Assembly: GCA_030637775.1 (NCBI GenBank)
Contig: DAOWFY010000167.1
Coordinates: 1 to 18,587, forward strand
DNA: 18,587 bases
Direction: 5' to 3'
Origin: DAOVGU01 sp030637775 [NCBI: bacterium]
GTDB lineage: Bacteria; Ratteibacteria; UBA8468
Numbering within the stretch: position 1 is the stretch's first letter; every line of letters begins with the position of its first letter. Both the position numbers and the translations under genes were made by a program. Of the stretch, positions 2 through 18,100 are shown piece by piece. Below the pieces are notes generated by a model. The model saw nothing but the letters and a program-made list of their open reading frames with translations. It ran no database searches and had not been told where the DNA came from.

Positions 2-502
2 ATACCGATCGCCAAGAGTGAGAGGCTAAAAAAGGAATATGGCTGTTGTTTAGAATCTCTAATCACCGACCATAAATTGGAGATCCCGCTCATAGACAGT
101 ATGGGAAGAGCTTTTTCCAAAACAGGACTTACTTCTGTTGCCGAAATTATTGAGCCCAGAATGGAAGAAATCTTCCTTTTAACAAAGCGGATCTTAAATA
201 GAAGTGGCTACAGTAGCCTCATCGGAGCCGGAGTTGTCCTTACCGGAGGAACCTCCCTCTTAAAAGGAATCAAGGAATTGGGGGAGAAAATTTTTAAGAT
301 GCCGGTGCGGATTGGAAGACCACGTGATATTATAGGGTTTGAGAAGAGTATCTACAATCCAATCTTCTCGGCTGCCGTAGGTCTTCTTCAGTATGGACTG
401 AGGAGGAGAGAGGCAACGGAACATATTCCTCGCTTCCCTCAGAACAATCCTTTAGTAAGATTCTATAAAAAGGTAAGAAGAGCATTTAGTGATTTCTTCT
501 GA
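2..502 (+). CDS. ftsA: Cell division protein FtsA, C-terminal part (5' end outside window)
   Basis: This is the last 166 codons of FtsA, the actin-like ATPase that tethers FtsZ filaments to the inner face of the cytoplasmic membrane and recruits later divisome proteins. The frame is open from position 2, so the gene begins before the window; the TTG at 77 is internal. Visible features are the late ATP-binding loop of the actin fold (VVLTGGTSLLKGI) and the following segment IFKMPVRIGRP, which are typical of FtsA subdomain 2B. The protein ends in a basic, amphipathic tail (NPLVRFYKKVRRAFSDFF) that fits the membrane-targeting helix of FtsA. The stop codon overlaps the ftsZ start by one base (TGATG), so the two are probably translationally coupled. 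The neighbour and the motifs leave little doubt about identity. Confidence 0.95.
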   Translation: MPIAKSERLKKEYGCCLESLITDHKLEIPLIDSMGRAFSKTGLTSVAEIIEPRMEEIFLLTKRILNRSGYSSLIGAGVVLTGGTSLLKGIKELGEKIFKMPVRIGRPRDIIGFEKSIYNPIFSAAVGLLQYGLRRREATEHIPRFPQNNPLVRFYKKVRRAFSDFF

Positions 503-1629
503 TGTTAAAGATAAAGGTAGATGAGGGGTTCGATAGGTTTGTAAAAATAAAGGTTGTGGGCATTGGTGGCGGTGGATGCAATGCCGTGGGAAGAATGACA
601 CCTTCGCTTTCGGGAGTAGACCTTATTGGAATTAATACCGATACCCAGGCATTAGCAAACTGCAATGTTCCCATTAAACTCCAGATTGGACAGCGGATCA
701 CCGAGGGCTTGGGTTCAGGAGGAGACCCCGAGAAGGGCAAATTTGCCGCAAACGAAGATAAGGAGCAGATTGCCAAACTCCTCAAGGGGGTAAATATCTG
801 CTTTTTGGCAGTTGGATTGGGAGGGGGAACCGGCACTGGCGCTTCACCAGTCATTGCTAAAATTGCTCGCGAGCAGGGTGCGATCACGGTAGCGGTGGTG
901 ACAACACCATTTGCCTTTGAAGGAGCAAAGCGGACGAATCGGGCTGAGCAAGGATTGATTGAATTAAAAGACAATACCGATACCCTGATTCATATTCCCA
1001 ACGAAAAACTGTTTGAGGTTGTGGACAGGAAAACCACAATTCTTGATGCCTTTAAAAAAATTGATGACATCTTAAGTCAGGGCGTTTCCTCCATTGTTGA
1101 ACTGATTACCCAGCCCGGGGTAATTAATTTGGACTTTGCCGATATCAGAGCGGTGATGGAGAATGGAGGAGAAAGCATTATGGGCGTTAGCAAAGGTAAA
1201 GGGCCAGAAAGGGCAGTAAATGCAGCCAAGGAGGCTATTACCAACCGTCTTTTAGAAGGAAAAGATATTGGTAGTGCCAAAAATATCTTGGTAAGCATTA
1301 CCGGTAGTTCTGATCTTACCCTGCATGAAGTGAAGGATGCAGTGAGAACCATCAATAACAGCCTGCCTTCCCTTTCCCATAGTATCTTCGGGGCGGTGGT
1401 CGATGAGAAATTAGAAGATGAGGTAAAGATTACCGTTATTGCTACTGGACTATCTGAGAAGAAAGAGTTTCCTCTTCCTCCCCAGAAAAGAGCACGTGCC
1501 AAAAAGGAAAAGAAAGAGCCAACCCTCTTTGATGCCGTAGAGACAACCATAATTGAGGGAGAAAATATCGATACTCCAACCTTTATCAGAAAGAGACAGA
1601 AAGACAGAAGGAAAACAGAAGAAGGCTAA
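502..1629 (+). CDS. ftsZ: Cell division GTPase FtsZ
   Basis: FtsZ is a tubulin-like GTPase that polymerises at mid-cell into the Z ring. The 375-residue protein has the glycine-rich nucleotide loop (VGIGGGGCNAVGRM, about residues 19-32), the tubulin signature GGGTGTG at residues 107-113, and the catalytic T7 loop NLDFAD at 209-214, which completes the GTPase site of the neighbouring subunit. After the globular domain there is only a short charged linker, followed by a conserved C-terminal peptide (IDTPTFIRKRQ) that binds FtsA and other partners, and a basic tail. The ATG start overlaps the ftsA stop. The GC content looks higher than that of most downstream genes. A dehydrogenase gene begins only two bases after the stop, so the division operon appears to run on into metabolic genes. 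Confidence 0.98.
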   Translation: MLKIKVDEGFDRFVKIKVVGIGGGGCNAVGRMTPSLSGVDLIGINTDTQALANCNVPIKLQIGQRITEGLGSGGDPEKGKFAANEDKEQIAKLLKGVNICFLAVGLGGGTGTGASPVIAKIAREQGAITVAVVTTPFAFEGAKRTNRAEQGLIELKDNTDTLIHIPNEKLFEVVDRKTTILDAFKKIDDILSQGVSSIVELITQPGVINLDFADIRAVMENGGESIMGVSKGKGPERAVNAAKEAITNRLLEGKDIGSAKNILVSITGSSDLTLHEVKDAVRTINNSLPSLSHSIFGAVVDEKLEDEVKITVIATGLSEKKEFPLPPQKRARAKKEKKEPTLFDAVETTIIEGENIDTPTFIRKRQKDRRKTEEG

Positions 1630-1631
1630 GG

Positions 1632-2948
1632 GTGGATATTTACTCTCTGCTGAACAAAAGATTCATTTGTCCATTTTGTAAGAAGCAGCATTGGATACCC
1701 ACCAAGGAGGTAGTCAGCAAAAAAGGAGCAATTCTTCTCCTACCTTTTCTCCTCTCACGCTTAATAAAGAAAAAGAGGATTTTAATTCTAAGCGATAATA
1801 TAACCTATAGAATAGCTGCCGAGAAATGTGAGAAAATTCTAAAAGAGAAATTTAAGGTATCCTCCCTCATTCTTTTTCCCCAAGGAGGCAAGAGGGTTTA
1901 TGCGGAAGAAAAATATTTACCGGCGATAGTAAAAAGATTACGGAATAAAGATGCGATTCTTATTGTGGGAACGGGCAGCATTACCGATATGGGAAAGTAT
2001 GCCGCTCATCAATTAAGGATACCGGTGATAAGCGTTCCCACCGCTCCTTCAATGAATGGCTTTACCTCGTCGGTAGCAGCCTTTCTCTCAAAAGGATTAA
2101 AGCTAACCCTACCGGTAAAACCAGCCCTTGGCGTCTTGACCGATATTGATCTCGTCTCTAATGCCCCTTTAGATTTGATCAGGGCAGGATTTGCCGATAG
2201 TTTAGCCAAATCCTTTGCTAACAGCGATTGGAAAATCTCCTCTTTTATCACCGGAGAAGATTTTTGCCCTCTTCCTTTAAAAATAACTACCGCGGCAGAA
2301 AAGAGGTATATCAATAAAGGTGAGGAACTTATTAAAAGAGATCGGAAAGTAATCTCTCGTCTGATGGAGGGATTAACCTCAGGAGGTTTTTCTATGGTTA
2401 TTGCCGGCAAATCCTCTCCCTCCTCTGGGGGAGAGCATCTCCTCTCCCATTTCCTGGATGTGGAGGCGCATCAACAGGGAAGAGAACCATTTTCCTACCA
2501 TGGTTTACAGGTCGGGTTGGGAATCATAGTTTCTTCCCATATTTATCAAAGGTTAAAGAATTTTTCTGCAAAGGATGTAGAAAAGGCACTTTCCCATAGA
2601 GATATTGATTATGAGCAAGCGATAAAATTCCTTGGCAGGGACGCTTCTTTAATCAAGAAGGAATTTAAGAAGAAGATTCCTATCTTAAAGGAACTGCCGC
2701 AGAAATTGCCTCCCTTATGGGAGCAGATTAAAGAAGAGGTTTTTCCCCTGGTCTATCCTCCAAGAAAGATAAAAGAATATCTAAGAAAAGCAAAATGCCC
2801 TTTACGTTTTGAGGAGATTGGTGTAAATAAAGAATTAGCCTATAGAACAATAATGTATGCTCGTTACGTCAGGGGAAGGTTGACCATTTTGGACATTGCC
2901 GATGAATTGGGCACACTAAAAGAGATTGCGGAAAGTTTTATAAAATAA
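1632..2948 (+). CDS. egsA: sn-Glycerol-1-phosphate dehydrogenase (EgsA/AraM family)
   Basis: This enzyme family interconverts dihydroxyacetone phosphate and sn-glycerol-1-phosphate with NAD(P)H. It makes the archaeal lipid backbone in archaea; in Bacillus AraM/EgsA feeds heptaprenylglyceryl phosphate synthesis. The 438-residue protein starts with a small CPFC...H motif (Cys13, Cys16, His20) common in bacterial EgsA. The nucleotide loop GTGSITDMGK is at 113-122 and the PTAPSMNGFTSS segment at 136-147. Likely metal ligands are Asp189 (AGFADSLAK), His269 (GGEHLLSH) and His290 (SYHGLQVG). It uses a GTG start with AAGG directly upstream, two bases after ftsZ. The family call is firm. Whether it makes or oxidises G1P here cannot be read from the sequence, and no ether-lipid prenyltransferase is in the window. 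Two glycerophosphodiesterase genes follow. Confidence 0.9.
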   Translation: MDIYSLLNKRFICPFCKKQHWIPTKEVVSKKGAILLLPFLLSRLIKKKRILILSDNITYRIAAEKCEKILKEKFKVSSLILFPQGGKRVYAEEKYLPAIVKRLRNKDAILIVGTGSITDMGKYAAHQLRIPVISVPTAPSMNGFTSSVAAFLSKGLKLTLPVKPALGVLTDIDLVSNAPLDLIRAGFADSLAKSFANSDWKISSFITGEDFCPLPLKITTAAEKRYINKGEELIKRDRKVISRLMEGLTSGGFSMVIAGKSSPSSGGEHLLSHFLDVEAHQQGREPFSYHGLQVGLGIIVSSHIYQRLKNFSAKDVEKALSHRDIDYEQAIKFLGRDASLIKKEFKKKIPILKELPQKLPPLWEQIKEEVFPLVYPPRKIKEYLRKAKCPLRFEEIGVNKELAYRTIMYARYVRGRLTILDIADELGTLKEIAESFIK

Positions 2949-2960
2949 AAAAACTAAATA

Positions 2961-3725
2961 ATGGTGAAGGTTATTGCTCACCGGGGGTTTTCAGGAAAGT
3001 TTCCAGAAAATACGGTATTAGCTTTTCAGAAAGCGGTTGAACTTAACGTGGATGAAATTGAATTTGATGTAAAAATCACTAAAGATAACAAACTCGTTCT
3101 CCTCCATGATGAGACGGTAGATAGAACAACAAATGGAAAAGGGAAAGTTTCCGAGATGAATTTAAGAGAGATTAAGGAATTAGATGCAGGTTCCTGGTTT
3201 AATCCTGAATATAAAGGAACTACAATTCCTACTTTTGAAGAAGCGTTGAAAAATATTCCTGAAGCAGTGGAATTGAATATCCACGCTTTAGCAGATTCTC
3301 AAGTTACTGAGCAGATTATCTTTTATCTCAATAAATACAAAAGAGTTAAAAGTGCTTATATTGCTATTGATGCCAGTCAGATTCCATTAGCCAGGAAACT
3401 ATGTCCTGAAATTCGGCTCTGCAATATGCATCGTCAAACCTCGCCTAACAAATATATTATAGGCACTCCTTATCTTGAAGAAACAAGGAGATTAAATTGT
3501 CCGATACTCCAATTTTCCACTCCTGCTCATGAAGTAACGGAAGATTTAATTAAAAAAGCGCACAGCTATCATCTATTTGTAAATGTTTTCTATGCGGACA
3601 GAAAAGAAGAAATGGAAAAATTAATTAAGTATAAGACAGATGCAATTTTAACAAATTATCCTGATATTCTTATCTCGGTGAAGCGTAGACAAGATAGAAA
3701 TGAACAGAAGGCAGCATTTCTTTGA
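2961..3725 (+). CDS. Glycerophosphodiester phosphodiesterase family protein, altered active site (GDPD1)
   Basis: GDPD enzymes hydrolyse glycerophosphodiesters to glycerol phosphate and an alcohol in a TIM barrel. This 254-residue protein has most signature elements: AHRG with His7, PENT at 15-18, the metal-binding EFD (Glu34, Asp36) and the HDETVDRTT block with His49. The third metal ligand, normally Glu in an NIEIK strand, is His108 here (ELNIHAL), and the following Lys is also lost. It may therefore use a different metal arrangement, belong to a subfamily with a different substrate, or be weakly active. There is no signal peptide, so it should be cytoplasmic. No clear ribosome site precedes the ATG. 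Its 3' end overlaps the UroD-like gene by 26 bases. A second GDPD with intact motifs lies 2.7 kb downstream, and the two are clearly diverged paralogs. Confidence 0.88.
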   Translation: MVKVIAHRGFSGKFPENTVLAFQKAVELNVDEIEFDVKITKDNKLVLLHDETVDRTTNGKGKVSEMNLREIKELDAGSWFNPEYKGTTIPTFEEALKNIPEAVELNIHALADSQVTEQIIFYLNKYKRVKSAYIAIDASQIPLARKLCPEIRLCNMHRQTSPNKYIIGTPYLEETRRLNCPILQFSTPAHEVTEDLIKKAHSYHLFVNVFYADRKEEMEKLIKYKTDAILTNYPDILISVKRRQDRNEQKAAFL

Positions 3726-4788
3726 CTGTGTAAATTTTGTTCCTGGTGCCCGTCCTTTATTAGGGCAAACGCTGTGGCTTATGCCGGGAGTAAAAGAATC
3801 ATGGCTAAAAGAAGGTATTACTCAGAGAGAAATTGACCAACTTATAGCACGCACTGATGATTGTCTTCGGAATCTTGGCATAGCAACTCATGTTTATCCT
3901 CCATTATCTCAGCAAGTCATTGAGGAAACAAAGAGATATTGGGTTCGTATCAATGAATTTGGAGCAACGGAGAAATTTATCAAGGGGTTATATGCAACAA
4001 GAGGTGTTATTATTGAACATCCAGTAAAAAATAAAGAGGATTGGCAGAAACTCAAACCTCGCTTTACCTATTGCTCCGAGAGATTTACTAAGGATTGGAA
4101 GGAAAAAGCATATGGTTTTCTGGAGGAAGGTTTTGGTCTCCAGCTCAGTTGCCATGGATTTTATGGTTTCTCGCGAGAACTCCTTGGTGATGAAAATCTT
4201 TGCCTATACTATTACGAAAATCCAGAATTAGTACACGATATAAATGAAACCTACTGTCGCCTCCTGCTTAATATTGCTGATAGAATAGAGAAGGAAGGAA
4301 TAAAATTAGATTCTGTCTATTTCTGGGAAGACCTGGCTGGTAAAACGGGTCCTATATTTGGTCCAAAGCAGTTTAAAGAATTTCTGTATCCTTACTACAG
4401 AGTTGTCACTCAACGATTTCGTCAATTGGGAGCCTACCATTTTATGGTAGATTCCGATGGCAATGTGGAGATTTTCATTCCATTATTTATGGAGACGGGA
4501 ATAAATAGTCTTTTCCCATTTGAATGTCAAGCCGGGATGGATATTGTAAAGATAAGAAAGAAATATCCCCATTTGGTCATGAGTGGTGGTTTGGATAAAC
4601 GGGTCTTTGTTAGAGATAAAACTGCTATTGATAAAGAACTGGAGTATAGATTGCCACCGATGATTAAATCAGGTGGTTATATATCATCGATTGATCACCG
4701 AGTTTTACTTGGGACTACTTTTAAGAGTTTTTCTTACTATATTAATCGAGTTGCAGATATGTTTGGAATAGGAGAAAAAAATGAGTAG
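3700..4788 (+). CDS. Uroporphyrinogen decarboxylase superfamily protein, function unknown
   Basis: The 362-residue protein has the layout of the UroD/MtaA superfamily, which includes heme-pathway decarboxylases and zinc-dependent methyltransferases. It opens with NRRQHFFDCVNF, which resembles the family's usual RERFLxxLNF start. Later it has an EDLAGKTGPIFGPKQFKEF segment and a GGLDKR turn. The position where methyltransferases of the MtaA type carry a His-x-Cys-Gly zinc motif reads VDSDGN, so it is unlikely to be a corrinoid methyltransferase of that type. It is also unlikely to be HemE, since it differs from heme enzymes and has no heme genes around it. Members like this are often seen among carbohydrate genes in uncultured bacteria, but I know of no assigned reaction. 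ATG 3700 is the only usual start after the upstream in-frame stop at 3679. It overlaps the nitrilase by 8 bases. Confidence 0.78.
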   Translation: MNRRQHFFDCVNFVPGARPLLGQTLWLMPGVKESWLKEGITQREIDQLIARTDDCLRNLGIATHVYPPLSQQVIEETKRYWVRINEFGATEKFIKGLYATRGVIIEHPVKNKEDWQKLKPRFTYCSERFTKDWKEKAYGFLEEGFGLQLSCHGFYGFSRELLGDENLCLYYYENPELVHDINETYCRLLLNIADRIEKEGIKLDSVYFWEDLAGKTGPIFGPKQFKEFLYPYYRVVTQRFRQLGAYHFMVDSDGNVEIFIPLFMETGINSLFPFECQAGMDIVKIRKKYPHLVMSGGLDKRVFVRDKTAIDKELEYRLPPMIKSGGYISSIDHRVLLGTTFKSFSYYINRVADMFGIGEKNE

Positions 4789-5637
4789 ATTGGTGAAAGT
4801 AGCAACGGTTCAGCCTCCTATTCCAAAAGGAGAGAAAGGAGGTGTAGTAACCAATAAAGAAATGGTTCGAAGAGGATTAACTCTTTTAGAAAGTGCTGGG
4901 AAGGAGAAAGTAGATATTACCTGTTTGCCAGAAATATTTAATGTGCTCGGACTTTCTCTTGAAGAATCCCTGAAGAAAGCATCTAATCCGGAACTGCTTT
5001 GCCTGAAAATTTCCAGAATAGCAAGAGAATATCGTATGTATATTGTCTATCCCACATTAGAAAAAAGAAAGGAGGAGTTTTATATCTCGGCAAACATTAT
5101 AGATAGAGAAGGAAAAATAGCAGGTAAATACGACAAGGCTCATCTTACCCGAGCCGAGAAAAGAAATTATGGTGCCACTCCTGGAAATAATTACCCGGTA
5201 TTCAAGACCAACTTTGGCAAGATTGGTGTCATGATTTGCTATGATTGCTACTTCTCTGAAGTAGCCCGAATTTTAACCCTAAACGGTGCAGAAATTATTT
5301 TCTATCCTTCTCTCCAAAGGCATTTTAGCGAGGTTTATTTTGAAATTCAAACCAGAGCCAGGGCATTAGACCATTCCGTCTATATAGTACGTTCCAGTTA
5401 TGGAGTTGAAGAAAGCCATCTATGGTTTCCCGGAATGATATTGGGAAGAAGTTGTATAATTGACAGAGATGGAACGATTATTGCCGACCTTGGACATAAA
5501 TAGGTTATCTTACAAAAGAAATAGATTTAGACAAACCAAGGCTAATGGAAGGTCCTGGCGGAGAAGGCAAGGTAGACATCGGGAAGTTTATACTTGAAGA
5601 TAGAAGACCAGAAACCTATAAAGATATATCCGAGTAA
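4781..5637 (+). pseudogene. Carbon-nitrogen hydrolase (nitrilase superfamily), frameshifted near the 3' end
   Basis: This encodes a nitrilase-superfamily amidohydrolase, which cleaves C-N bonds in amides or N-carbamoyl compounds. The Glu-Lys-Cys catalytic triad is intact: Glu51 (CLPEIF), Lys119 (KYDKAH) and Cys153 (MICYDCYF). The first frame stops at TAG 5501-5503, after ADLGHK. In the -1 frame the sequence continues without a gap as GYLTKEIDLDKPR and on to a TAA at 5635-5637. Aligned this way the whole protein would be about 285 residues, normal for the family, and the GxxxxxIDL strand is the expected next element. One base is therefore missing around 5498-5503, through true mutation or assembly error. 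The 240-residue product would lack only the last strands and the dimer-contact tail and might still fold. A GGAG at 4771-4774 serves the ATG. The substrate is unknown. Confidence 0.85.
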
Positions 5638-5642
5638 TTTAA

Positions 5643-6393
5643 ATGATTATTGGCATAGATCTACATGGAACTCTTCTAAATAAAGATTGGTCTATTGCGA
5701 AGAATCTGGTAGAACCCATGAATGAAGCTTTAGCCAAGTTAAATGAAAAAACAAAGATTTATACCTGCACCGGAAATGACCTTTCCTTTGTTAAGACTCA
5801 TATCCCCTCCTCCATCCAGAAATATTTTGCAGGCTATGTGCTAGAAACCGGATGTGTAATAAGCGATAAGGAGAAGGAGGAAATAATAACTACATAAGGA
5901 AGAAAGAAAAAGAATAAAGGATTTGGAAAAAAGACTAAAAGCAAACAAATTTCCTTTTGATTTTATGGGAAAAAGATTAAGCAGTATCACCATGTTTACC
6001 AAGAATCCCAAAGGACTTTATGCAGAAATTAATAACTTTTTGAAGAAAGAAAAGGTTGGTGGAGTGGATTTTTTCTGGTCGGATGTGGCGGTAGATATCG
6101 TTCCTTCTGGTTACAACAAATATACCGGCTTAATGAGATTTGTAAATGGAGATGCGAAGGTGGGAGCGATTGCTGACTCAATGAATGATGTTTCTCTTCT
6201 CGCCGGTGTCAACTATGGGTTTATCCCCCATAATGCACCAGAGGAGTTACTAACCTGTATTGAAAGGAAGGGAAAGCGCTTAATAAATATAAAAGAAGTT
6301 TCCCGTCTGGATTCATCTTGCATAGTCCAAGCAGATAGAGAAAGGACAGAAGCGGTAATAGAAATTTTAAATCTTATCGAGAAGTTAATTTAA
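5643..6393 (+). pseudogene. HAD-superfamily sugar-phosphate phosphatase-like protein, frameshifted
   Basis: Two reading frames together make one Cof/SPP-type HAD phosphatase of about 249 residues. The first (5643-5897) carries motif I as DLHGT near residue 6 and motif II TCTGND. It stops at TAA 5895-5897 after EEIITT. The second frame is open from 5890 (LHKEERKRIKDLEKRLK) and carries the cap domain and motif IV ADSMND, ending at 6393. Removing one base between about 5887 and 5897 restores a continuous protein. The TTG at 5923 could allow separate expression of the second half, but that half alone lacks the nucleophile. Motif I normally reads DxDxT; here the second Asp is His, encoded CAT where GAT would give Asp. 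Its stop overlaps the next start (TAATG). The substrate is unknown; sugar phosphates are typical for the family. Confidence 0.8.
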
Positions 6394-7127
6394 TGAAAAG
6401 TATATTAATTACTGCTCATCGGGGTCTAAGTTCTCTCTATCCAGAAAACACATTGATTAGTTTTAAAGAAGCGGCTAAACTTGGAGTGGATCTGATAGAA
6501 TTGGATGTTCGTCAAACAAAGGATAGAAAATTAGTGATAATCCATGATGATTCTATTGACAGAACAACGGAGGGAAAAGGGAAAGTGTGCCAGCTTACAT
6601 TAAAAGAGATAAAAAGATATAGTGCAGGAAGATGGTTTTCGAAAAAGTTTAAAGAAGAAAGGATTCCTACCTTATCAGAGGCTTTCGAAGTGATAGAAAA
6701 AAGAGCAAAAATCTTAATAGAGATAAAAGAGCCGGGTATAGAAGAAGGTCTGATTAATTTAATAAAAAGGTATCCGATAGCAAATAACGCTATCTGTGGC
6801 TCCTTTTATTTAGAAAGCATAATCAGAATAAGAAAATTACAGCCATCTATTCCCACTGCCTTCATTACAAACTCTCTTAATTTAGAAAGAATGAAAAAGC
6901 CTTTGCTAAGAGAAGGTATCAATATAGTGGCGATAGACTTTAATCATTTATCATTACCATTATTAAAAAATTGCCATAGTTATGGATTTGTAGTAAATGC
7001 CTGGACAATAAATGAAGAAAAGGATATGAAGAAATTTTTAAAGATGGGGATAGACATCATAACCAGCAATTATCCGCAGAGACTAAAAAGATTATTAAAG
7101 GAGGACACTTATGTTACCAACCATTGA
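6393..7127 (+). CDS. Glycerophosphodiester phosphodiesterase, complete active site (GDPD2)
   Basis: This 244-residue cytoplasmic GDPD should hydrolyse glycerophosphodiesters to glycerol phosphate and the head-group alcohol. All family motifs are present: AHRG with His9, PENT at 17-20, ELD with Glu36 and Asp38, HDDSIDRTTEGKG with His51, and the ILIEIK strand with Glu110 and Lys112. In contrast to the related gene at 2961, the metal-ligand Glu is retained. The C-terminal part (VNAWTINEEKDMKKFLKMGID...TSNYP) is the usual end of the barrel. The ATG overlaps the HAD stop codon, and the 3' end overlaps the next gene by 17 bases, so it sits inside a translationally linked set. Its GC is low, about 32% over 6841-7020. 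Whether it acts on sn-1 or sn-3 glycerol phosphate esters cannot be told from sequence. Confidence 0.92.
   Translation: MKSILITAHRGLSSLYPENTLISFKEAAKLGVDLIELDVRQTKDRKLVIIHDDSIDRTTEGKGKVCQLTLKEIKRYSAGRWFSKKFKEERIPTLSEAFEVIEKRAKILIEIKEPGIEEGLINLIKRYPIANNAICGSFYLESIIRIRKLQPSIPTAFITNSLNLERMKKPLLREGINIVAIDFNHLSLPLLKNCHSYGFVVNAWTINEEKDMKKFLKMGIDIITSNYPQRLKRLLKEDTYVTNH
7097..7104 (+). promoter_or_regulatory. Strong Shine-Dalgarno site inside the end of GDPD2
   Basis: AAAGGAGG lies six bases before the ATG at 7111. It supports that start even though the gene then overlaps the upstream coding region by 17 bases. It is stronger than the sites of the preceding genes, most of which rely on overlap. Confidence 0.7.
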
Positions 7128-7929
7128 TCTATGCGGTAAGGAAATTACCAGACTGATCTGTGGGGGGAATCCATTCTCCGGTTTTTCCCATGTCAGCGAG
7201 GAAATGGATTTTGAGATGATTTCCTACTACACTATGCCTAAACTGCAGGAAGCTCTGATAGAATGCTGGAAGAATGGTATCAACACCTTCCAATCCCGGG
7301 GTGACCGGCACCAGATGCGGATGTACCTTGAGCACCGAGAAAGTGGTGGACAGATGCAATGGATTGCACAAACGGCTTCCGAGTTCGCTGATATCCGGTC
7401 AAATATCCGGGAGATTGTAAAGTACAAACCGATTGCTATTTACCATCATGGTACCCATACCGATAACTCCTGGCATGCGGGTAAGATTGACATCGTGGCG
7501 GACATTGTAAAAGCTATTAAAGATGCGGGATTGCCGGCCGGAATCGGCTCGCATATTCCGGAGGTCATTGAGTATGCGGAAGAGAAGGGCTGGGAGACAG
7601 ATTTCTATATGTGCTGTTTCTATGACTTAGCGCGTGGCTATAAGGCAGCGGTGGCCACCGACCAAGATGCGTATGCTAAGGACCAATTTCCTGAGTCTGA
7701 CCCGGAGCGAATGACGGTGGTGATGCGTCAGGTGTCTAAACCCTGTTTAGGTTTTAAGATTATGGCGGCCAGCCGTAACTGTGAGACGCCCAAGGATACA
7801 AAGGCTACCTTTCAATATGCTTTTAATCATATCAAATCCACTGATGCGGTGGTGGTGGGTATGTTCCAAAAGCACAAGAACCAAATTGCAGAAAATGCCC
7901 GTATCGTCAGTGAATTGTTAAACAAATGA
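7111..7929 (+). CDS. Aldo-keto-reductase-like TIM-barrel protein, function unknown
   Basis: I do not recognise a characterised relative of this 272-residue protein. Its order of segments resembles an aldo-keto reductase barrel: GKEITRLICGGNPFSGF at the N-terminus, KLQEALIECWKNGINTFQS, AIYHHGTHTD, then LPAGIGSHIPEVIEYAEEKGW and DFYMCCFYD. In true reductases the strand after INTF carries a catalytic Asp and later a Tyr; here it reads QSRGD, so the usual Asp-Tyr-Lys-His tetrad is not evident. It may be a non-redox barrel or a different enzyme class. GC over 7261-7620 is about 50%, against about 32-34% in sampled parts of both flanking genes, which suggests strong codon selection or separate origin. 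It overlaps GDPD2 by 17 bases and the FAD dehydrogenase by 4 (ATGA). There is no signal peptide. Confidence 0.65.
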   Translation: MLPTIDLCGKEITRLICGGNPFSGFSHVSEEMDFEMISYYTMPKLQEALIECWKNGINTFQSRGDRHQMRMYLEHRESGGQMQWIAQTASEFADIRSNIREIVKYKPIAIYHHGTHTDNSWHAGKIDIVADIVKAIKDAGLPAGIGSHIPEVIEYAEEKGWETDFYMCCFYDLARGYKAAVATDQDAYAKDQFPESDPERMTVVMRQVSKPCLGFKIMAASRNCETPKDTKATFQYAFNHIKSTDAVVVGMFQKHKNQIAENARIVSELLNK

Positions 7930-9353
7930 TAATAAAGAGAGAGCCGGATGAGATGCTCAGTTATTTGGAGGATAGCTCCAACTTCCAAAAGGGCAAGAGT
8001 GAGGCTCTTTATATCCCGGAGGATGAAAAAGAGGTAATAGAGGCAATAGCCGAATGTGCTGATAAAAGGATTCCTCTAACCATCTCGGCCGGGGGAACGG
8101 GAACGGTTGGAGGAAGAATCCCTCTGGAGGGAGCAATCCTTTCCGTAGAAAAATTAAATAAGATTATTTCCCTGGACAAAAGGGGAAAAAAGGCAATTTT
8201 GCAGGCGGGAGTGGTGATTGATGATTTTTTAAAGATTTTAAAAACTCAAAATCTCTTTTACCCGCCCTTCCCTACCGAAAGAACCGCTTTTATCGGTGGA
8301 AATGTCTCCACCAATGCCTCCGGAGAATATAGTTATCGCTTCGGTTCAACCAGAGGCTATGTGAGGGAAATAAAGGTTATTCTCTCCACTGGAGAAACCC
8401 TAGAGATAGAGAGAGGTAAATATTTTGCCGACAAGGATAGGTATCTGCCGATAGGTGATAAAAAAATAAAGGTTCCTTCTTATATCACTCCCTCTATTAA
8501 ATGTTCCGCCGGCTATTTTTCCCAATCAGGGATGGATTTGATCGATCTATTTATTGGTTCAGAGGGAACTTTGGGAATGATTACCGAGGTAGAGGTAAAA
8601 CTGATTCCTGCCCTTTCTTCTCCATTTATAATGATCATCTTCTTTAAAAAGAATGAAATCCTGAAATTTATCTCCGAGGTTAAGGGAGATAAAAAATTGA
8701 ATCCTCTCTCCTTAGAATATTTTGACAAACGGAGTCTGGACTTTCTAAAAAAGGACTTTCCCAATATACCGGATGTTAGTAGAGAGGCTCTTTACATAGA
8801 ACAAGAAGAAAGCGAAAATATTTTAGAGGAATGGGTAAAGCTGATAGAAAAATATGAGGTGATTGATACCTGGATAAGTCAGGACAGAAGAACCTATGAG
8901 AAACTTATTAATTTCCGCCACAAACTCCCCGAGAATATCAATGACTATTTTAAGAAGATTAGATCAACCAAAATAGCCCTGGATATTGCCGTTCCGCAAG
9001 AGCATTTTAGAGAACTTTTTGACTTTTACCAAACTTTAAGGTTAAATAACCCTCGGATTGAGACCGTCCTCTTTGGTCATATTGGAGAAAATCATCTCCA
9101 TTTTAATTTCTTTCCCCGGGATGAAAAAGAGAGGGAAAAAGTCGCCAAGATCTGTGAAGAGGCAATTAAAAAGGGGATAAACTTAGGAGGAACCATCTCA
9201 GCCGAGCATGGCATTGGCAAGTTAAAGCATAAATACTTAGAGTCAATGTATGGAAAAGAAGGAGTTGGTGAGATGGCAAGGATAAAAAAGGAACTTGACC
9301 CCTATTGCATTTTCGGTTTAGACAATATTTTTCCTAAAAGGTTGCTTATGTGA
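7926..9353 (+). CDS. FAD-binding 2-hydroxyacid dehydrogenase, GlcD/D-lactate dehydrogenase family
   Basis: The 475-residue protein is a VAO/PCMH-fold flavoenzyme with the FAD-linked oxidase C-terminal domain. FAD-binding segments are AGGTGTVGGRIPLEG (about 56-70), GGNVSTNASGEYSYRFGSTRG and the FIGSEGTLGMITEVE block. The C-terminal domain has the catalytic FGHIGENHLHFNFFP and the conserved GGTISAEHGIGKLK. Relatives oxidise glycolate, D-lactate, D-2-hydroxyglutarate and similar hydroxyacids. Alkyl-DHAP synthase is a distant member of the same fold. No GlcE subunit or GlcF-type iron-sulfur partner is next to it and it lacks an iron-sulfur domain, so its electron acceptor is unknown. It begins within the previous gene (ATGA overlap). 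In this setting it could oxidise a sugar acid or a hydroxyacid from the neighbouring enzymes, which is inference only. Confidence 0.88.
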   Translation: MIIKREPDEMLSYLEDSSNFQKGKSEALYIPEDEKEVIEAIAECADKRIPLTISAGGTGTVGGRIPLEGAILSVEKLNKIISLDKRGKKAILQAGVVIDDFLKILKTQNLFYPPFPTERTAFIGGNVSTNASGEYSYRFGSTRGYVREIKVILSTGETLEIERGKYFADKDRYLPIGDKKIKVPSYITPSIKCSAGYFSQSGMDLIDLFIGSEGTLGMITEVEVKLIPALSSPFIMIIFFKKNEILKFISEVKGDKKLNPLSLEYFDKRSLDFLKKDFPNIPDVSREALYIEQEESENILEEWVKLIEKYEVIDTWISQDRRTYEKLINFRHKLPENINDYFKKIRSTKIALDIAVPQEHFRELFDFYQTLRLNNPRIETVLFGHIGENHLHFNFFPRDEKEREKVAKICEEAIKKGINLGGTISAEHGIGKLKHKYLESMYGKEGVGEMARIKKELDPYCIFGLDNIFPKRLLM

Positions 9354-11380: not shown

Positions 11381-13096
11381 GTGAAGGGAATAAATCTACC
11401 CAATATCTGGAAAGAAGGGCAGCTTTTTGCCTCTTCCGGTTTGGAAGGAAGGACTGACTGGTACCACCCTTTTGTAGCCAGCACATTATTTTCTCCTGGC
11501 GCCCTTCTTTTTCATACCTATCCAGAAAGGAAACTTATTTTCTCAGGGAAAAAGATAAAAAATAAGAAAGAGGATATCGTCACCTCTGATTTCGTTTTCT
11601 TTTCTCGGCCTTTTCTTTCTTATCTTTTCCTTGATAAAGATACCATAATTGGTCAGTCCCATTCCTCAATTATTCCTGAAGTCTCCTCTGGAGAAGGAAT
11701 CAAGGAAAGGAGGGAGGGAAATAGCATCTTTCAATTTGCTTCTCAAAGCTATACCGTATTACTTTGGAAAAAGAGTCAAAAGAAGGTTAAATTTACCTAT
11801 GCCTTTGACTCAAAAAATATTGAAAATGCTTTGAGCAAAGCGAAAAAAGGATTGAAGGTAGATTTCATCTTAAAAAAGAAGAAAAAATTATCCTTCTTTA
11901 AGAGATTGACTCGCTTAAAATTTCCTCGGCCCATTTTAGAAAGAACATATTACAAAGCATTTTCTGTGCTTAAGGTCAATATTGAATCTCCGCAGGGAAA
12001 GATAAAACATATCTGGACCACACCCGACCGTTTTCCTCATAAGGATATGTGGTTCTGGGATTCTGCCTTTCACGCTTTAGGAAACAGATATATCTCTTCT
12101 ACTTTGGCTGAAGATAGTATTAAAGCAGTTCTTCAACTTCAAAGAAAGGATGGTTTTGTTGCTTTTCAAATGAATCCTGAGAAAAAAAGAGCATCTGAAG
12201 AATATACTCAACCTCCACTTCTTGCCTGGGCAAGTTATAATCTTTATTGCCATAGCAAAAACAAGACGTTCTTAAGATATGTTTATCCCAGACTCAAAAA
12301 ATATCTTCTCTGGCTTTACCGAAATAGAGATAAAAATAAAGATGGACTTTTAGAATGGAAGATAAGTCCCTCGGCAGTTTGCAAAGGTGGAGAGACAGGA
12401 ATGGATAATTCTCCTCGTTTTGACCGCTTAAACCCTGGGGATGCGATGGCGGCTATTGACCTTAACAGTTTTGTTATTAATGAGATGGAATATTTGGAAA
12501 GGATGGCGCAGGAATTGAACAAAAAGGGGGACATTATCCTCTGGCACAAAGAAAGGAAACTAAAGAAAGATTCGGTTAATTCCCGGCTTTGGAGTAAGAG
12601 AGATCGCTTCTATTATGACCTAAAAGAAAATGGAAAGTTCAACAAAATTAAAACCATTTCTTCGTTTCTGCCCCTCTTTGCTGGGATTGCCAATAAAAAA
12701 CAGGCACAATCTTTGGTGAACCACCTGAAAAACCGAAAGCAATTCTGGAGTGATTTTCCCATTCCTTCTGTCTCCATGGATGAGCCCTCTTACTGTAAGG
12801 ATATGTGGCGCGGTCCTACCTGGATCAATTATAATTATTTAATTATTGAAGGGTTAAAAAGATATGGCTATAATAGATTAGCTCATCGGATTATAAATAA
12901 AACCCTGAAAGAGATAGCCAGATGGTATAAAAAGAAAGGGGCCATCTTTGAATATTATGATAGTGAAGGGGAAACATCTCCCGTTAGATTGCTACGCAAA
13001 GAATGGCTGGGTGGTAAAAAATATCTTGGAACAATAAAAGATTATCATTGGAGCGCTGCGCTCTATATAGCCTTAGCCAATTTTCAATTTAAATAA
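11381..13096 (+). CDS. GH63/MGH1-like glycoside hydrolase
   Basis: The 571-residue protein has a roughly 200-residue N-terminal region of unclear fold followed by an (alpha/alpha)6 barrel like mannosylglycerate hydrolase and other GH63-type inverting glycosidases. The barrel starts with TTPDRFPHKDMWFWDSAFHALG; Asp227 in WFWDSAF is the likely general acid. GMDNSPRFD at about 340-348 is a second hallmark. The late segment MWRGPTWINYNYLIIEGL and the YHWSAALYI end are typical of the clan. No signal peptide is seen, so it should act inside the cell on imported small glycosides. GTG 11381 is the first usual start after an in-frame stop at 11312 but has no good ribosome site, and a rarer start upstream (CTG 11333) cannot be excluded. 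With UxaE and epimerase genes around it, a uronate- or glycerol-containing glycoside is a reasonable guess. Confidence 0.82.
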   Translation: MKGINLPNIWKEGQLFASSGLEGRTDWYHPFVASTLFSPGALLFHTYPERKLIFSGKKIKNKKEDIVTSDFVFFSRPFLSYLFLDKDTIIGQSHSSIIPEVSSGEGIKERREGNSIFQFASQSYTVLLWKKSQKKVKFTYAFDSKNIENALSKAKKGLKVDFILKKKKKLSFFKRLTRLKFPRPILERTYYKAFSVLKVNIESPQGKIKHIWTTPDRFPHKDMWFWDSAFHALGNRYISSTLAEDSIKAVLQLQRKDGFVAFQMNPEKKRASEEYTQPPLLAWASYNLYCHSKNKTFLRYVYPRLKKYLLWLYRNRDKNKDGLLEWKISPSAVCKGGETGMDNSPRFDRLNPGDAMAAIDLNSFVINEMEYLERMAQELNKKGDIILWHKERKLKKDSVNSRLWSKRDRFYYDLKENGKFNKIKTISSFLPLFAGIANKKQAQSLVNHLKNRKQFWSDFPIPSVSMDEPSYCKDMWRGPTWINYNYLIIEGLKRYGYNRLAHRIINKTLKEIARWYKKKGAIFEYYDSEGETSPVRLLRKEWLGGKKYLGTIKDYHWSAALYIALANFQFK

Positions 13097-15661: not shown

Positions 15662-16657
15662 ATGAAGAAGGTAAAGGTTATTCATTTAGGGGTAGGAGGC
15701 AGAGGTGTCTGGCCAATAAACCTATTTAAGGAAAGGGAAGATTTTGTCTCGGTAGCCTATGTAGATGTGAACAAGGAGGCGATGGAGAAGACTACTGCTA
15801 TCTCCGGTCTTTCTCCCGAGAAATGCTTTCCTACTTTGGAAGAGGCATTAGAAAAGGTTGAAGCAGATAGCGTATTTATCATTACTCCTCCGCAGTTACA
15901 CAGCAAGCAATGTCTGCAGGCAGTGGAGGCGGGTAAACATATCCTGGTGGAAAAGCCCTTTACCCTGTCCTTGAAGGAAGCAAAAGATATTGTCCGCAAA
16001 GCAGAAGAAAAAGGACTAAAGGTCGTTGTGGCGCAAAATGCTCGTTATTCACCGCTTCATAAAAAATTGGGCAGTTTAATTAAAGAAGAGGTTTACGGAA
16101 AACCTTCCTTTGGTCTACAGGTAAATCTTTCCTGGCGTCCAGGGGTTCATCATTCAGGGAAGGGCAGACATTCCTACCTCTGGGAAAGGAGTGTCCATGA
16201 TTTCGATACTATTCGCTCATTCTTTAAGAGTCAGCCAAAAAGGGTCTGGGGGTACAGTTTTAACCCTTCCTGGAGTCCTTATGAACATGGGGCTTGTAAC
16301 TACACCTGGATAGAGTTCGAAGATGGTCTTATTTTTGGTGTTATGGCTGGCTTTGCGGCTCATGGTAGAAAAAATCTTCTGCAGATTGAATGTGAAAATG
16401 GCTCCTTAGAGGTTATTGCCGGTCAAATTCATCTCAGAAGACCAGAGGCAACCGAAGATGAAATTTTGCCCGTAGCGGAAGGAGAACCAGCAGAATCAAT
16501 CCTTTTGGATGGATTTTATAAGTACATCACGGAAGGGGTTGAGCCTCCTTTCAGTGGCAGAGAGAATCTAAAGACCATTGCATTGGTGGAGGCTTCTGGC
16601 ATTGCCTCAGACGAAGGAAAGATTATCGAGGTTTCCGAGGATTTAGGCCTTCTTTAA
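15662..16657 (+). CDS. Gfo/Idh/MocA family oxidoreductase
   Basis: This is an NAD(P)-dependent sugar dehydrogenase of 331 residues. The Rossmann domain begins IHLGVGGRG (about 7-15), has an acidic residue at Asp35 at the end of the second strand, which favours NAD(H), and carries the family's EKP motif at 97-99 (ILVEKPFTLS). The C-terminal domain has SVHDFDTIRSF, which fits the catalytic Asp/His helix. Substrates in this family range from inositols to uronates and amino sugars, so a precise call is not possible. Directly behind uxaE, a uronate or keto-uronate reductase/dehydrogenase is an attractive guess. GGAGGG at 15650-15655 supports ATG 15662. Its last 15 bases overlap the end of the convergent radical SAM gene, so no intrinsic terminator separates the two. 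Confidence 0.9.
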   Translation: MKKVKVIHLGVGGRGVWPINLFKEREDFVSVAYVDVNKEAMEKTTAISGLSPEKCFPTLEEALEKVEADSVFIITPPQLHSKQCLQAVEAGKHILVEKPFTLSLKEAKDIVRKAEEKGLKVVVAQNARYSPLHKKLGSLIKEEVYGKPSFGLQVNLSWRPGVHHSGKGRHSYLWERSVHDFDTIRSFFKSQPKRVWGYSFNPSWSPYEHGACNYTWIEFEDGLIFGVMAGFAAHGRKNLLQIECENGSLEVIAGQIHLRRPEATEDEILPVAEGEPAESILLDGFYKYITEGVEPPFSGRENLKTIALVEASGIASDEGKIIEVSEDLGLL

Positions 16658-18100
16658 ATATTCCTTCTCCCAGATGGGGTCGGTTAATTCTCTATATCTT
16701 CGGTTATACTCAGGCATCTCTCCTTTTTCGATAAAAGAGAGATAGGTTCTTGCTCCTTCGTCTACTGGCCGGGCATTTACCTCTCTCATGGTATTATAGA
16801 AAACTTCAGAATTGTCTCGGATAGGACAGGGAGCCAGTAAATTACCGCATTTCTCACGGGGTTGGTCTAACCAGTAAGAAGAATGCCATTCCCGTATGCG
16901 AGAGAAAAGAGGAGACTTAATTACATCGGTAAGGGTTTCTCCTCTTTCATAAACCTGGTAAATGTTGCCGTAGTTTTTGTCAGCAAAGGGTATAAAGACG
17001 CAAGGGGTAATGGTGCCATCCCACATAATATAAAAATAACCTCCTCCCCGGGCAGCGGCCATACAGCCATCGGAGGCGGTACCTGAATTCCAGAAGTCGG
17101 CAATAAATATCTTATCCTCGGTTACCTTCTTCCAGATTCTTCTGTACATCTGCACTCTTTGTTCCGGAGTAACCATTAAATCCATCGAAGGGCTTCTCCC
17201 AATAGGCATATACTGGAAATACCAGCCGTAAAAGGTGCCTTTTTCCTTAAAGAAAAAATCTACAAATTTATCGGAGAGGAGAATATCGGCATTATGTGCG
17301 CAAGGTGTTACCGAAATACCGAACATTACTCCGGACTCTTTTAGATTGTCCATTGCGGCCATTATTTTCTTAAAAGTTCCTTTTCCTCTGCGCTCATCAG
17401 TCTCTTTTTCAAACCCCTCTACGGAAATAGCGGGAGTAAAATTACCCAATCCACCTAACTGCTTAGCCCTTTCCTTATTTATTAAGGTGCCGTTGGTATA
17501 GGCCATAAAGTAAGCATCCTGGTGCTTAGCTAAAATATCGATTAAAGTTTTGTTTTTGTCTTTATACATAAAAGGTTCTCCTCCAGAGATGACAAAGAAA
17601 TGGGCGGCAAATTCCTTTTTCATATCGGTAATTATTCGGTCAAAAATCTCATAATCTAAGGTATGTCTGGTATAAACATCCCCGGCATAACAACCTTTGC
17701 ATTTCAGGTTACAGACATTGGTGGGAGCGATAGCGATGAGACCGGGTGGTCTAAAATCGTGATCTTCCTTAAATTCTCTTCGAGTATGCATACCCTCCAC
17801 AAAAATTTTGGAAAGGAACACATAGGTCAATTTTCTGACACACTCTTTTGATATACTGCTGGAAGAAAGAGCTCGATCTATAGAATTAAGAAGGGCTCTT
17901 CCCATATAAAACCTATCTTCCTTAGCCTTTTCTGGCCGCTCTGGTCCTTTAAGAGACATCTTATAGGTAGCCTTTTCAATCGCCTTTATCAATGTTCTTC
18001 TTGTCCGGGAGTTTCTAAAACCCATATTTACTATGTAAGTGATAAACTTAGAAGGACTGCTTTTCTCCATAATATTAAATACTTTTTCCTCTAAATTCAT
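16643..18100 (-). CDS. Radical SAM/SPASM-type protein
   Basis: The 485-residue protein binds a radical-SAM 4Fe-4S cluster through Cys130, Cys134 and Cys137 (VCNLKCKGCYAG) and has the SAM-binding SGGEPF at 172-177. The C-terminal part has further conserved cysteines (Cys346, Cys367, Cys418, Cys425), with WDGTITPC and APCPIRDN, which fit an auxiliary-cluster SPASM/twitch region. About 120 residues precede the core, an extension larger than in simple activators. Relatives mature peptides or modify small substrates, and the usual database label of PqqA peptide cyclase would be unreliable here. I see no precursor peptide gene next to it. It starts within the stop of the 61-residue upstream gene (ATGA overlap), so the two are probably made together. 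The substrate is unknown. Confidence 0.88.
   Translation of the reverse strand: MNLEEKVFNIMEKSSPSKFITYIVNMGFRNSRTRRTLIKAIEKATYKMSLKGPERPEKAKEDRFYMGRALLNSIDRALSSSSISKECVRKLTYVFLSKIFVEGMHTRREFKEDHDFRPPGLIAIAPTNVCNLKCKGCYAGDVYTRHTLDYEIFDRIITDMKKEFAAHFFVISGGEPFMYKDKNKTLIDILAKHQDAYFMAYTNGTLINKERAKQLGGLGNFTPAISVEGFEKETDERRGKGTFKKIMAAMDNLKESGVMFGISVTPCAHNADILLSDKFVDFFFKEKGTFYGWYFQYMPIGRSPSMDLMVTPEQRVQMYRRIWKKVTEDKIFIADFWNSGTASDGCMAAARGGGYFYIMWDGTITPCVFIPFADKNYGNIYQVYERGETLTDVIKSPLFSRIREWHSSYWLDQPREKCGNLLAPCPIRDNSEVFYNTMREVNARPVDEGARTYLSFIEKGEMPEYNRRYRELTDPIWEKEYLKKA

What the first reader, a model, noticed from the sequence alone, without database searches (positions are those of the whole stretch)
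1632..7127. Glycerol-1-phosphate dehydrogenase grouped with two glycerophosphodiesterases: a possible G1P salvage or supply module
EgsA-type enzymes handle sn-glycerol-1-phosphate, the archaeal stereoisomer. GDPDs release glycerol phosphate from diesters. Their grouping suggests a route from G1P-type diesters (archaeal lipid head groups or bacterial G1P compounds) to DHAP, or the reverse. I know of no described pathway combining them with a UroD-like protein, an amidase and a HAD phosphatase.
Basis: inference. Interest (0 to 1): 0.65.

Follow-up and report, generated by a model that had tools for sequence, protein, structure and literature searches.

The report
Mirror-image glycerol-phosphate enzyme with diesterases
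A bacterial gene for handling the archaeal mirror-image form of glycerol phosphate sits beside two genes of a family that cuts glycerol phosphate out of lipid head groups; here the neighbours look like a recent insertion, but the same pairing has arisen several times elsewhere and suggests that some bacteria recycle this molecule.

Summary
In detail: 1632-7127 carries a glycerol-1-phosphate dehydrogenase (EgsA/AraM) homologue, two GDPD-family genes, a URO-D-like, a CN-hydrolase and a HAD-IIB gene. Corrections: the CN-hydrolase and HAD genes are frameshifted, GDPD1 has an altered active site, and the grouping is young. In the sister genome EgsA, its catalytic core deleted, is followed directly by GlcD, and the six-gene block (GDPD1 to orf272) is missing there. 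In the class a GDPD was seen beside EgsA in only 2 of 16 genomes; PcrB is over cut-off in 0 of 37.

Yet EgsA beside a GDPD has four separate origins in an 80-row tree (window, a classmate, two Desulfobacterota-type bins), with about 0.1 expected and 3 seen in 76 fetched loci. ABC importer genes lie within 3 kb of EgsA in 14 of 76, including one true UgpB-UgpA set and PhnCE-type sets; UgpB and a phosphonate-family importer were shown in 2025 to carry G1P. Salvage (diester to G1P to DHAP) is the best single explanation of the pairing, but is not shown for this locus. Rivals: a chance insertion, G1P supply for lipids, another substrate.

The parts
502..1629 (+). ftsZ, directly upstream of EgsA
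   Evidence: PF00091/PF12327; 92.8% identical in sister genome G001
1632..2948 (+). EgsA/AraM-family G1PDH homologue, 438 aa, GTG start
   Evidence: Fe-ADH_2; D189, H269, H290 invariant in 13 of 13 aligned; best solved sequence and fold match is B. subtilis AraM 9h4x
2961..3725 (+). GDPD1, variant GDPD with the canonical E-x-K replaced (N-I-H)
   Evidence: PF03009; N-[IL]-H in 5 of 5 members of its subfamily aligned; model pLDDT 92, nearest fold GlpQ 5t9b
3700..4788 (+). URO-D-like protein, substrate unknown
   Evidence: PF01208 6.7e-8
4781..5503 (+). CN-hydrolase (amidase), 3' end lost to a frameshift
   Evidence: PF00795; homologue in G013 67% identical in a 291-aa frame
5643..6393 (+). HAD-IIB phosphatase split by a frameshift (5643-5897 and 5923-6393)
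   Evidence: PF08282 in both pieces; sequence read
6393..7127 (+). GDPD2, GDPD with canonical residues
   Evidence: PF03009; HR, EN, E-x-D, HD and E-x-K present
7111..7929 (+). orf272, last gene of the inserted block, no Pfam or NCBIfam family at E 0.001
   Evidence: absent from the corresponding place in G001; third-position GC 0.54
7926..9353 (+). GlcD-type FAD-linked 2-hydroxyacid dehydrogenase, probable ancestral neighbour of EgsA
   Evidence: PF01565/PF02913; directly after EgsA in L073 (76% identical), L078 (52%) and L074 (28%), and after the EgsA remnant in G001

Best explanation
The locus is a G1PDH-family gene (EgsA/AraM) beside which a block with two GDPD genes was inserted. Most likely working: GDPDs without a visible signal peptide cut glycerophosphodiesters in the cytosol (deacylated lipid head groups such as glycerophosphoglycerol). 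Glycerol phosphate released with sn-1 handedness is oxidised by EgsA with NAD(P)+ to DHAP, which enters glycolysis; the sn-3 product can be used by PlsY or oxidised. Shown: gene identities, conserved EgsA metal-ligand positions, a canonical active site in GDPD2, no PcrB above cut-off in the class, and repeated independent pairing of EgsA with GDPDs and importers elsewhere. Inferred: substrate, stereochemistry, direction of the EgsA reaction, location of the GDPDs (judged by eye), and any role for the URO-D-like, amidase and HAD genes (two of which look broken).
For: EgsA is nearest to G1PDHs by profile, sequence and predicted fold (9h4x first, then M. jannaschii G1PDH). GDPD immediately beside EgsA in L081 (=G023), L122 and L137, confirmed with PF03009; the tree needs 4 separate origins with the window and starred branches force all 4 (counted against the 29 rows of the other labelled groups). 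About 0.1 such neighbours expected in 76 loci, 3 seen. GDPD matches at 3-10 kb from EgsA: none at the same threshold, one weak (L140). L127: UgpB (438.5 over cut-off 411) and UgpA (342.3 over 335) in line with EgsA; L142: PhnC, PhnE and a phosphonate-type binding protein over cut-off, then HAD-IIA, then EgsA. Published: GpxB (phosphonate-transporter family) and UgpB carry G1P in Phaeobacter (PMC12718374); LTA is a G1P polymer and the phosphatidylglycerol head group carries G1P (PMC7086022). PcrB over cut-off in 0 of 37 genomes. In G001 the EgsA core and the GDPDs are both missing.
Against: In the class a GDPD was seen beside EgsA in 2 of 16 genomes, and 8 of 16 show no GDPD at all. The window's grouping looks like a recent insertion, and the window was picked for it. 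In L120 and L124, whose EgsA is very close to that of L122, the neighbour is no GDPD. No UgpB in any of 35 class genomes, own included, and no importer in the window. Importer ATPase profiles hit as often at 3-10 kb (5 genes) as within 3 kb of EgsA (6 genes), and importer profiles were built from the neighbours counted; binding proteins in L101, L110, L141, L143 and L147 are below every specific cut-off. GDPD1 lacks a usual active-site Glu. B. subtilis GlpQ and its E. coli and S. aureus orthologues are strictly sn-3 specific (PMC7086022). A G1PDH-annotated protein of Halobacterium is a glycolaldehyde reductase with no notable G1P or DHAP activity (PMC9700705).
Confidence: 0.4

Rival explanations
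1. Chance company: a foreign block (GDPD1 to orf272) landed between EgsA and GlcD and has no pathway link with EgsA; EgsA works with GlcD or alone.
For: EgsA directly next to GlcD in L073, L074 and L078, and EgsA remnant next to GlcD in G001; block absent at that place in G001; third-position GC 0.28-0.37 for GDPD1 to GDPD2 and 0.54 for orf272 against 0.37-0.45 for the other genes (suggestive only); two block genes frameshifted.
Against: Three further EgsA loci have a GDPD as immediate neighbour, on separate branches, more than chance. The MGH gene at 11381 is also missing in G001, so gene content differs there in more than one place and loss in G001 is not excluded.
Confidence: 0.3
2. Supply, not salvage: EgsA reduces DHAP to G1P, which PlsY/PlsC put into phospholipids of mixed handedness; the GDPDs recycle the resulting diesters.
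For: plsY and gpsA lie 4-6 kb (gpsA) from EgsA on the same strand in G007, G012, G017, G018 and G026; plsY and gpsA are present in G000; PlsY and PlsC of B. subtilis and E. coli accept both forms (PMC13400652, abstract and passages); VTT-domain (DedA-type) genes within 3 kb of EgsA in 6 of 76 loci and CDP-alcohol phosphatidyltransferases in 3 (Pfam checked for 4 of the 6 and 2 of the 3).
Against: The run in those genomes also holds formyltransferase (purN-type), argininosuccinate synthase and AIRS (thiL-type) genes, so it may be mere housekeeping; in G000 plsY-gpsA are on another contig (C131); importer contexts elsewhere point to uptake.
Confidence: 0.15
3. Different substrate: the protein reduces or oxidises another short aldehyde, polyol or polyol phosphate within the sugar-acid operon (UxaE, Gfo, AP2, DUF6807, GlcD).
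For: Downstream genes are mostly sugar and sugar-acid families; GlcD is the probable ancestral neighbour; distant homologues in Rhizobiaceae sit in polyol-like operons with HAD-IIB, glpD and an FGGY kinase; a G1PDH paralogue is a glycolaldehyde reductase (PMC9700705).
Against: 174.5 bits to the G1PDH model against 34.5 to the haloarchaeal glycolaldehyde reductase model; AraM is the nearest fold.
Confidence: 0.15

Closest known systems
B. subtilis AraM (bacterial G1PDH, PDB 9h4x)
   Same: Family, fold and metal-ligand pattern
   Different: 28% identical in the structural alignment; the window protein has an N-terminal C-x2-C-x3-H motif, and its genome shows no PcrB over cut-off, the partner of AraM in B. 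subtilis (recalled)
E. coli ugpBAEC-ugpQ (UgpQ is a GDPD; recalled)
   Same: GDPD linked to glycerol-phosphate salvage; L127 has UgpB and UgpA in line with EgsA
   Different: No UgpB in the window's genome; EgsA stands where G3P enzymes act in E. coli (recalled)
GpxB / UgpB G1P importers of Phaeobacter MED193 (PMC12718374)
   Same: Importers of the same broad families found next to EgsA in some Desulfobacterota-type bins
   Different: The passages read name no enzyme that degrades imported G1P (its SI table was not seen); no UgpB and no importer beside EgsA here
Archaeal-type ether lipid genes in FCB bacteria (PMC7852524, search listing only)
   Same: EgsA-type enzyme in a bacterium
   Different: PcrB over cut-off in 0 of 37 genomes

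Membership tests
G1PDH (EgsA/AraM) family | Fe-ADH_2 domain | tested here: met
   PF13685 92.9 bits over cut-off 28
G1PDH (EgsA/AraM) family | Metal ligands Asp, His, His | tested here: met
   D189, H269, H290 invariant in 13 of 13 and aligned with Asp, His, His of AraM; that these are the ligands is recalled
G1PDH (EgsA/AraM) family | Closest fold is a G1PDH | tested here: met
   Ranks 1-10 are 9h4x and 4rfl/4rgq/4rgv; 3ce9, named glycerol dehydrogenase, is at 11-12 ahead of G1PDH 5fb3
NCBIfam NF002022 G1PDH equivalog | Score over 413 bits | tested here: not met
   174.5 bits: a homologue, not an equivalog under that model
G1PDH (EgsA/AraM) family | DHAP/G1P activity | not testable with these tools
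   needs the enzyme
GDPD family, GDPD2 | PF03009 and canonical active site | tested here: met
GDPD family, GDPD1 | Canonical active site (Glu of E-x-K, aligned with GlpQ Glu152) | tested here: not met
   N-[IL]-H in 5 of 5; PF03009 and fold are met
Archaeal-type ether lipid synthesis in bacteria | PcrB/GGGP synthase | tested here: not met
   0 of 37 over cut-off, 4 weak matches below it; own genome 83.5% complete
Ugp system | UgpB | tested here: not met
   0 of 35 class genomes, own included
Conserved EgsA-GDPD module | Grouping kept in relatives | tested here: inconclusive
   2 of 16 EgsA class genomes, not kept in close kin of L122, but 4 separate origins in the wider tree

The most novel reading that the evidence does not exclude
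Some bacteria run a G1P economy parallel to G3P: EgsA, in one operon-like run with gpsA and plsY in part of this class, makes or burns the mirror-image backbone, and EgsA-GDPD(-importer) modules, assembled several times independently, recycle G1P diesters from their own or foreign membranes to DHAP. EgsA would then be the enzyme missing from the described bacterial G1P uptake route.
Probability: 0.2. Interest if true: 0.75.

Novelty: new variant of a known kind. Interest (0 to 1): 0.45.

Why it matters
G1P is the archaeal lipid backbone. Importers for it in marine bacteria were reported in December 2025 (PMC12718374), but the passages read there name no enzyme that uses it; PlsY/PlsC were reported in 2026 to accept it (PMC13400652). 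A recurrent EgsA-GDPD and EgsA-importer linkage gives a concrete candidate, and relatives in cultured groups (a Desulfuromusa bin, Sinorhizobium plasmids) in which to test it. The window itself is a weak example: young, partly broken and from a draft bin of a lineage known here only from bins.

Tried and rejected
Archaeal ether-lipid operon: rejected. The genes of about 230 and 297 aa beside EgsA in the class first looked like PcrB and UbiA by size but are DUF72 and AIRS, and PcrB is absent over cut-off. EgsA as sole glycerol-phosphate source: rejected, gpsA and plsY are present. GlcD as alkyl-DHAP synthase: unlikely, its best solved relatives are LctD, a putative oxidoreductase (3pm9), glycolate oxidase and D-2-hydroxyacid dehydrogenases, with alkyl-DHAP synthase far weaker. 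The whole set URO-D/amidase/HAD/GDPD as a conserved pathway: not found at any other fetched EgsA locus, although URO-D-superfamily genes lie within 3 kb in 7 of 76 loci (that profile was built partly from three of them), a CN-hydrolase in one, and HAD-IIA in 4. Orthology of the Rhizobiaceae HAD-IIB with the window HAD: no significant similarity. Viral contigs gave no EgsA relative. Limits: one search returned the best 80 of 195 relatives, so the sample is of near kin, and 11 of the 80 are the same contigs as class genomes; 4 of 80 (L091, L098, L115, L136) dropped out because the script found no EgsA frame; the Poisson figure uses a GDPD density from 15 chosen genomes and treats loci as independent. 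A GDPD-like frame 8 kb from EgsA in L140 (9e-9) was not counted. G000 and its relatives are draft bins: absences and the G001 deletions could be assembly faults. Elsewhere in G001 only GDPD was searched for, not the other block genes.
Full report
WHAT IS THERE. The window is one whole contig (C33) of an 83.5%-complete, 1.40-Mb draft genome, G000. Its genes run in one direction from an ftsA piece and ftsZ to 16.66 kb, with a radical-SAM gene opposite. The CN-hydrolase and the HAD-IIB gene are each broken by a frameshift. PF03009 matches both GDPDs far above cut-off, and EgsA carries the Fe-ADH_2 domain.

EGSA. It scores 174.5 bits to the NCBIfam G1PDH model, below the 413-bit equivalog cut-off, and 34.5 bits to the glycolaldehyde reductase model. 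Its nearest solved relative by sequence and predicted fold is B. subtilis AraM (9h4x), followed by fold by M. jannaschii G1PDH (model pLDDT 92). D189, H269 and H290 are invariant in 13 of 13 aligned sequences, as is an N-terminal C-x2-C-x3-H. A looser form of that motif is in 66 of 80 rows of the family. A G1PDH-annotated protein in Halobacterium turned out to be a glycolaldehyde reductase (PMC9700705, passages), so the substrate stays an inference.

THE TWO GDPDS DIFFER. GDPD2 has the canonical residues. GDPD1 belongs to a subfamily (window, G007, G012, G017, G034) in which the E-x-K is replaced by N-[IL]-H in 5 of 5. The His aligns with Glu152 of GlpQ (numbering worked out by hand), one of the active-site residues listed in PMC7086022 (passages). 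Its model (pLDDT 92) is closest to GlpQ 5t9b and T. tengcongensis GDPD. It may use another metal or substrate, or be inactive.

THE GROUPING IS YOUNG. In sister genome G001 (L038) ftsZ is followed by an EgsA remnant of 171 aa, then GlcD. The remnant lacks about window 1644-1726 and 2015-2726, including the three metal-ligand positions. GDPD1 to orf272 are missing at that place, and G001 has no GDPD match. The MGH gene is missing there too, so this stretch differs at more than one point. EgsA next to GlcD also occurs in Aerophobetes L073 (GlcD 76% identical), Nitrospirota L078 (52%) and WOR-3 L074 (28%). The tree puts L073 beside the window EgsA (94/94, just below its starring limit). GDPD1 to GDPD2 have third-position GC 0.28-0.37 and orf272 0.54, the other genes 0.37-0.45. 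The simplest history is an insertion between EgsA and GlcD.

CLASS CONTEXT. EgsA matches occur in 16 of 35 class genomes (counting fragments in G001, G011 and G033) and GDPD in 12 of these 35 (which examined 37 genomes). Both: 8; EgsA only: 8; GDPD only: 4; neither: 15; Fisher p 0.09. A GDPD was seen beside EgsA only in G000 and G023; contig ends hide one side in G011, G024 and G033. In G007, G012, G017, G018 and G026 EgsA lies in a same-strand run with plsY, gpsA, argG and thiL-type genes. gpsA and plsY are present in G000 on contig C131. PcrB is over cut-off in 0 of 37; UgpB matches 0 of 35.

WIDER CONTEXT. The genome-contig scan confirmed 195 relatives and returned the best 80, of which 76 gave a usable EgsA frame. 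A GDPD is the immediate neighbour in L081 (the G023 record), L122 and L137. With 36 GDPDs in 54.7 Mb over 15 such genomes about 0.1 is expected, p about 2e-4, or 0.0036 for a 3-kb window. On the 80-row tree the four GDPD-adjacent EgsAs need four origins, and starred branches force four; but L120 and L124, close kin of L122, have no GDPD beside EgsA. Importer genes lie within 3 kb of EgsA in 14 of 76 loci, in at least three clades. The permease profiles hit near EgsA more than at 3-10 kb (PhnE-type 6 genes to 0, UgpA-type 5 to 0, PhnU2-type 3 to 1), the ATPase profile does not (6 to 5), and all were built from neighbours. Of those examined, L127 has UgpB and UgpA over equivalog cut-off; L142 has PhnC, PhnE and a phosphonate-type binding protein over cut-off and a HAD-IIA; L110, L101 and L143 have PhnS2-like proteins below cut-off; L141 and L147 have binding proteins of other kinds. 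URO-D-superfamily genes lie within 3 kb of EgsA in 7 of 76 loci, five of them class genomes, against 2 loci at 3-10 kb (L073 confirmed by Pfam). In six Rhizobiaceae plasmid regions read, a more distant EgsA (25% identical in the one compared) is followed by a HAD-IIB gene in 5 and has glpD annotated after that in 4, mostly with an ABC importer.

MECHANISM. These facts fit salvage best: GDPD releases glycerol phosphate and EgsA takes the sn-1 form to DHAP. Natural sn-1 sources include LTA and phosphatidylglycerol head groups (PMC7086022, passages) and archaeal lipids. UgpB and GpxB import G1P in Phaeobacter (PMC12718374, part 1 of 6 of the text and passages). A supply role is possible, since PlsY and PlsC take both enantiomers (PMC13400652, abstract and passages). 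For this very locus, chance company by insertion remains a strong rival.

NOVELTY. Each enzyme family is known. No paper joining a bacterial G1PDH and a GDPD in one module was found in the library searches. The papers there that hold the words were looked at as passages: PMC13140500 and PMC9880548 list both proteins in one genome without linking them, and PMC8262930 discusses AraM only. Most subscription journals are not in that library.

Noticed in passing
L038:9270-9782 (G001): In-frame remnant of EgsA (171 aa, open) between ftsZ and GlcD, with the catalytic part deleted.
   Followed up: yes
window 2961-3725 and relatives in L040, L062, L064, L067: GDPD subfamily with the E-x-K motif replaced by N-[IL]-H; possible new activity. 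In L040, L062 and L067 a DAO-type FAD oxidoreductase lies beside it or one gene away.
   Followed up: partly
L029, L032, L034, L036, L037: Same-strand run plsY-gpsA-...-argG-(URO-D)-(DUF72)-EgsA-thiL type, placing both glycerol-phosphate dehydrogenase kinds and PlsY together.
   Followed up: partly
window 1668-1691 (EgsA residues 13-20): N-terminal C-x2-C-x3-H, a looser form of which is in 66 of 80 rows; possible extra metal site, absent from the five Rhizobiaceae and Rubrobacter sequences checked.
   Followed up: partly
L105, L112, L116, L131, L133, L144: VTT-domain (DedA-type) gene near EgsA (mostly Myxococcota-labelled bins), CDP-alcohol phosphatidyltransferase near it in L094, L112 and L131: a lipid context.
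   Followed up: partly
window 16643-18100; L075, L076, L063: A radical-SAM/SPASM protein 60-69% identical to the window's lies two genes from EgsA in L075 and L076 and two genes from a GDPD in L063.
   Followed up: no
L073, L080, L082, L086, L089, L090, L106: URO-D-superfamily genes one or two genes from EgsA in 7 of 76 loci, a recurrent company of unknown meaning.
   Followed up: partly
L040:9207-9822 (G012): Decayed second EgsA copy about 5 kb from a GDPD1-GDPD2 tandem.
   Followed up: no
window 5490-5640 and 5880-5930: Two frameshifts within about 400 bases, in the CN-hydrolase and HAD genes: assembly error or decay of the inserted block.
   Followed up: partly
L161, L162, L163, L164, L168: Rhizobiaceae plasmids of named strains: EgsA-HAD-IIB, in four of these five with glpD annotated next, then a kinase or ABC importer.
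   Followed up: partly
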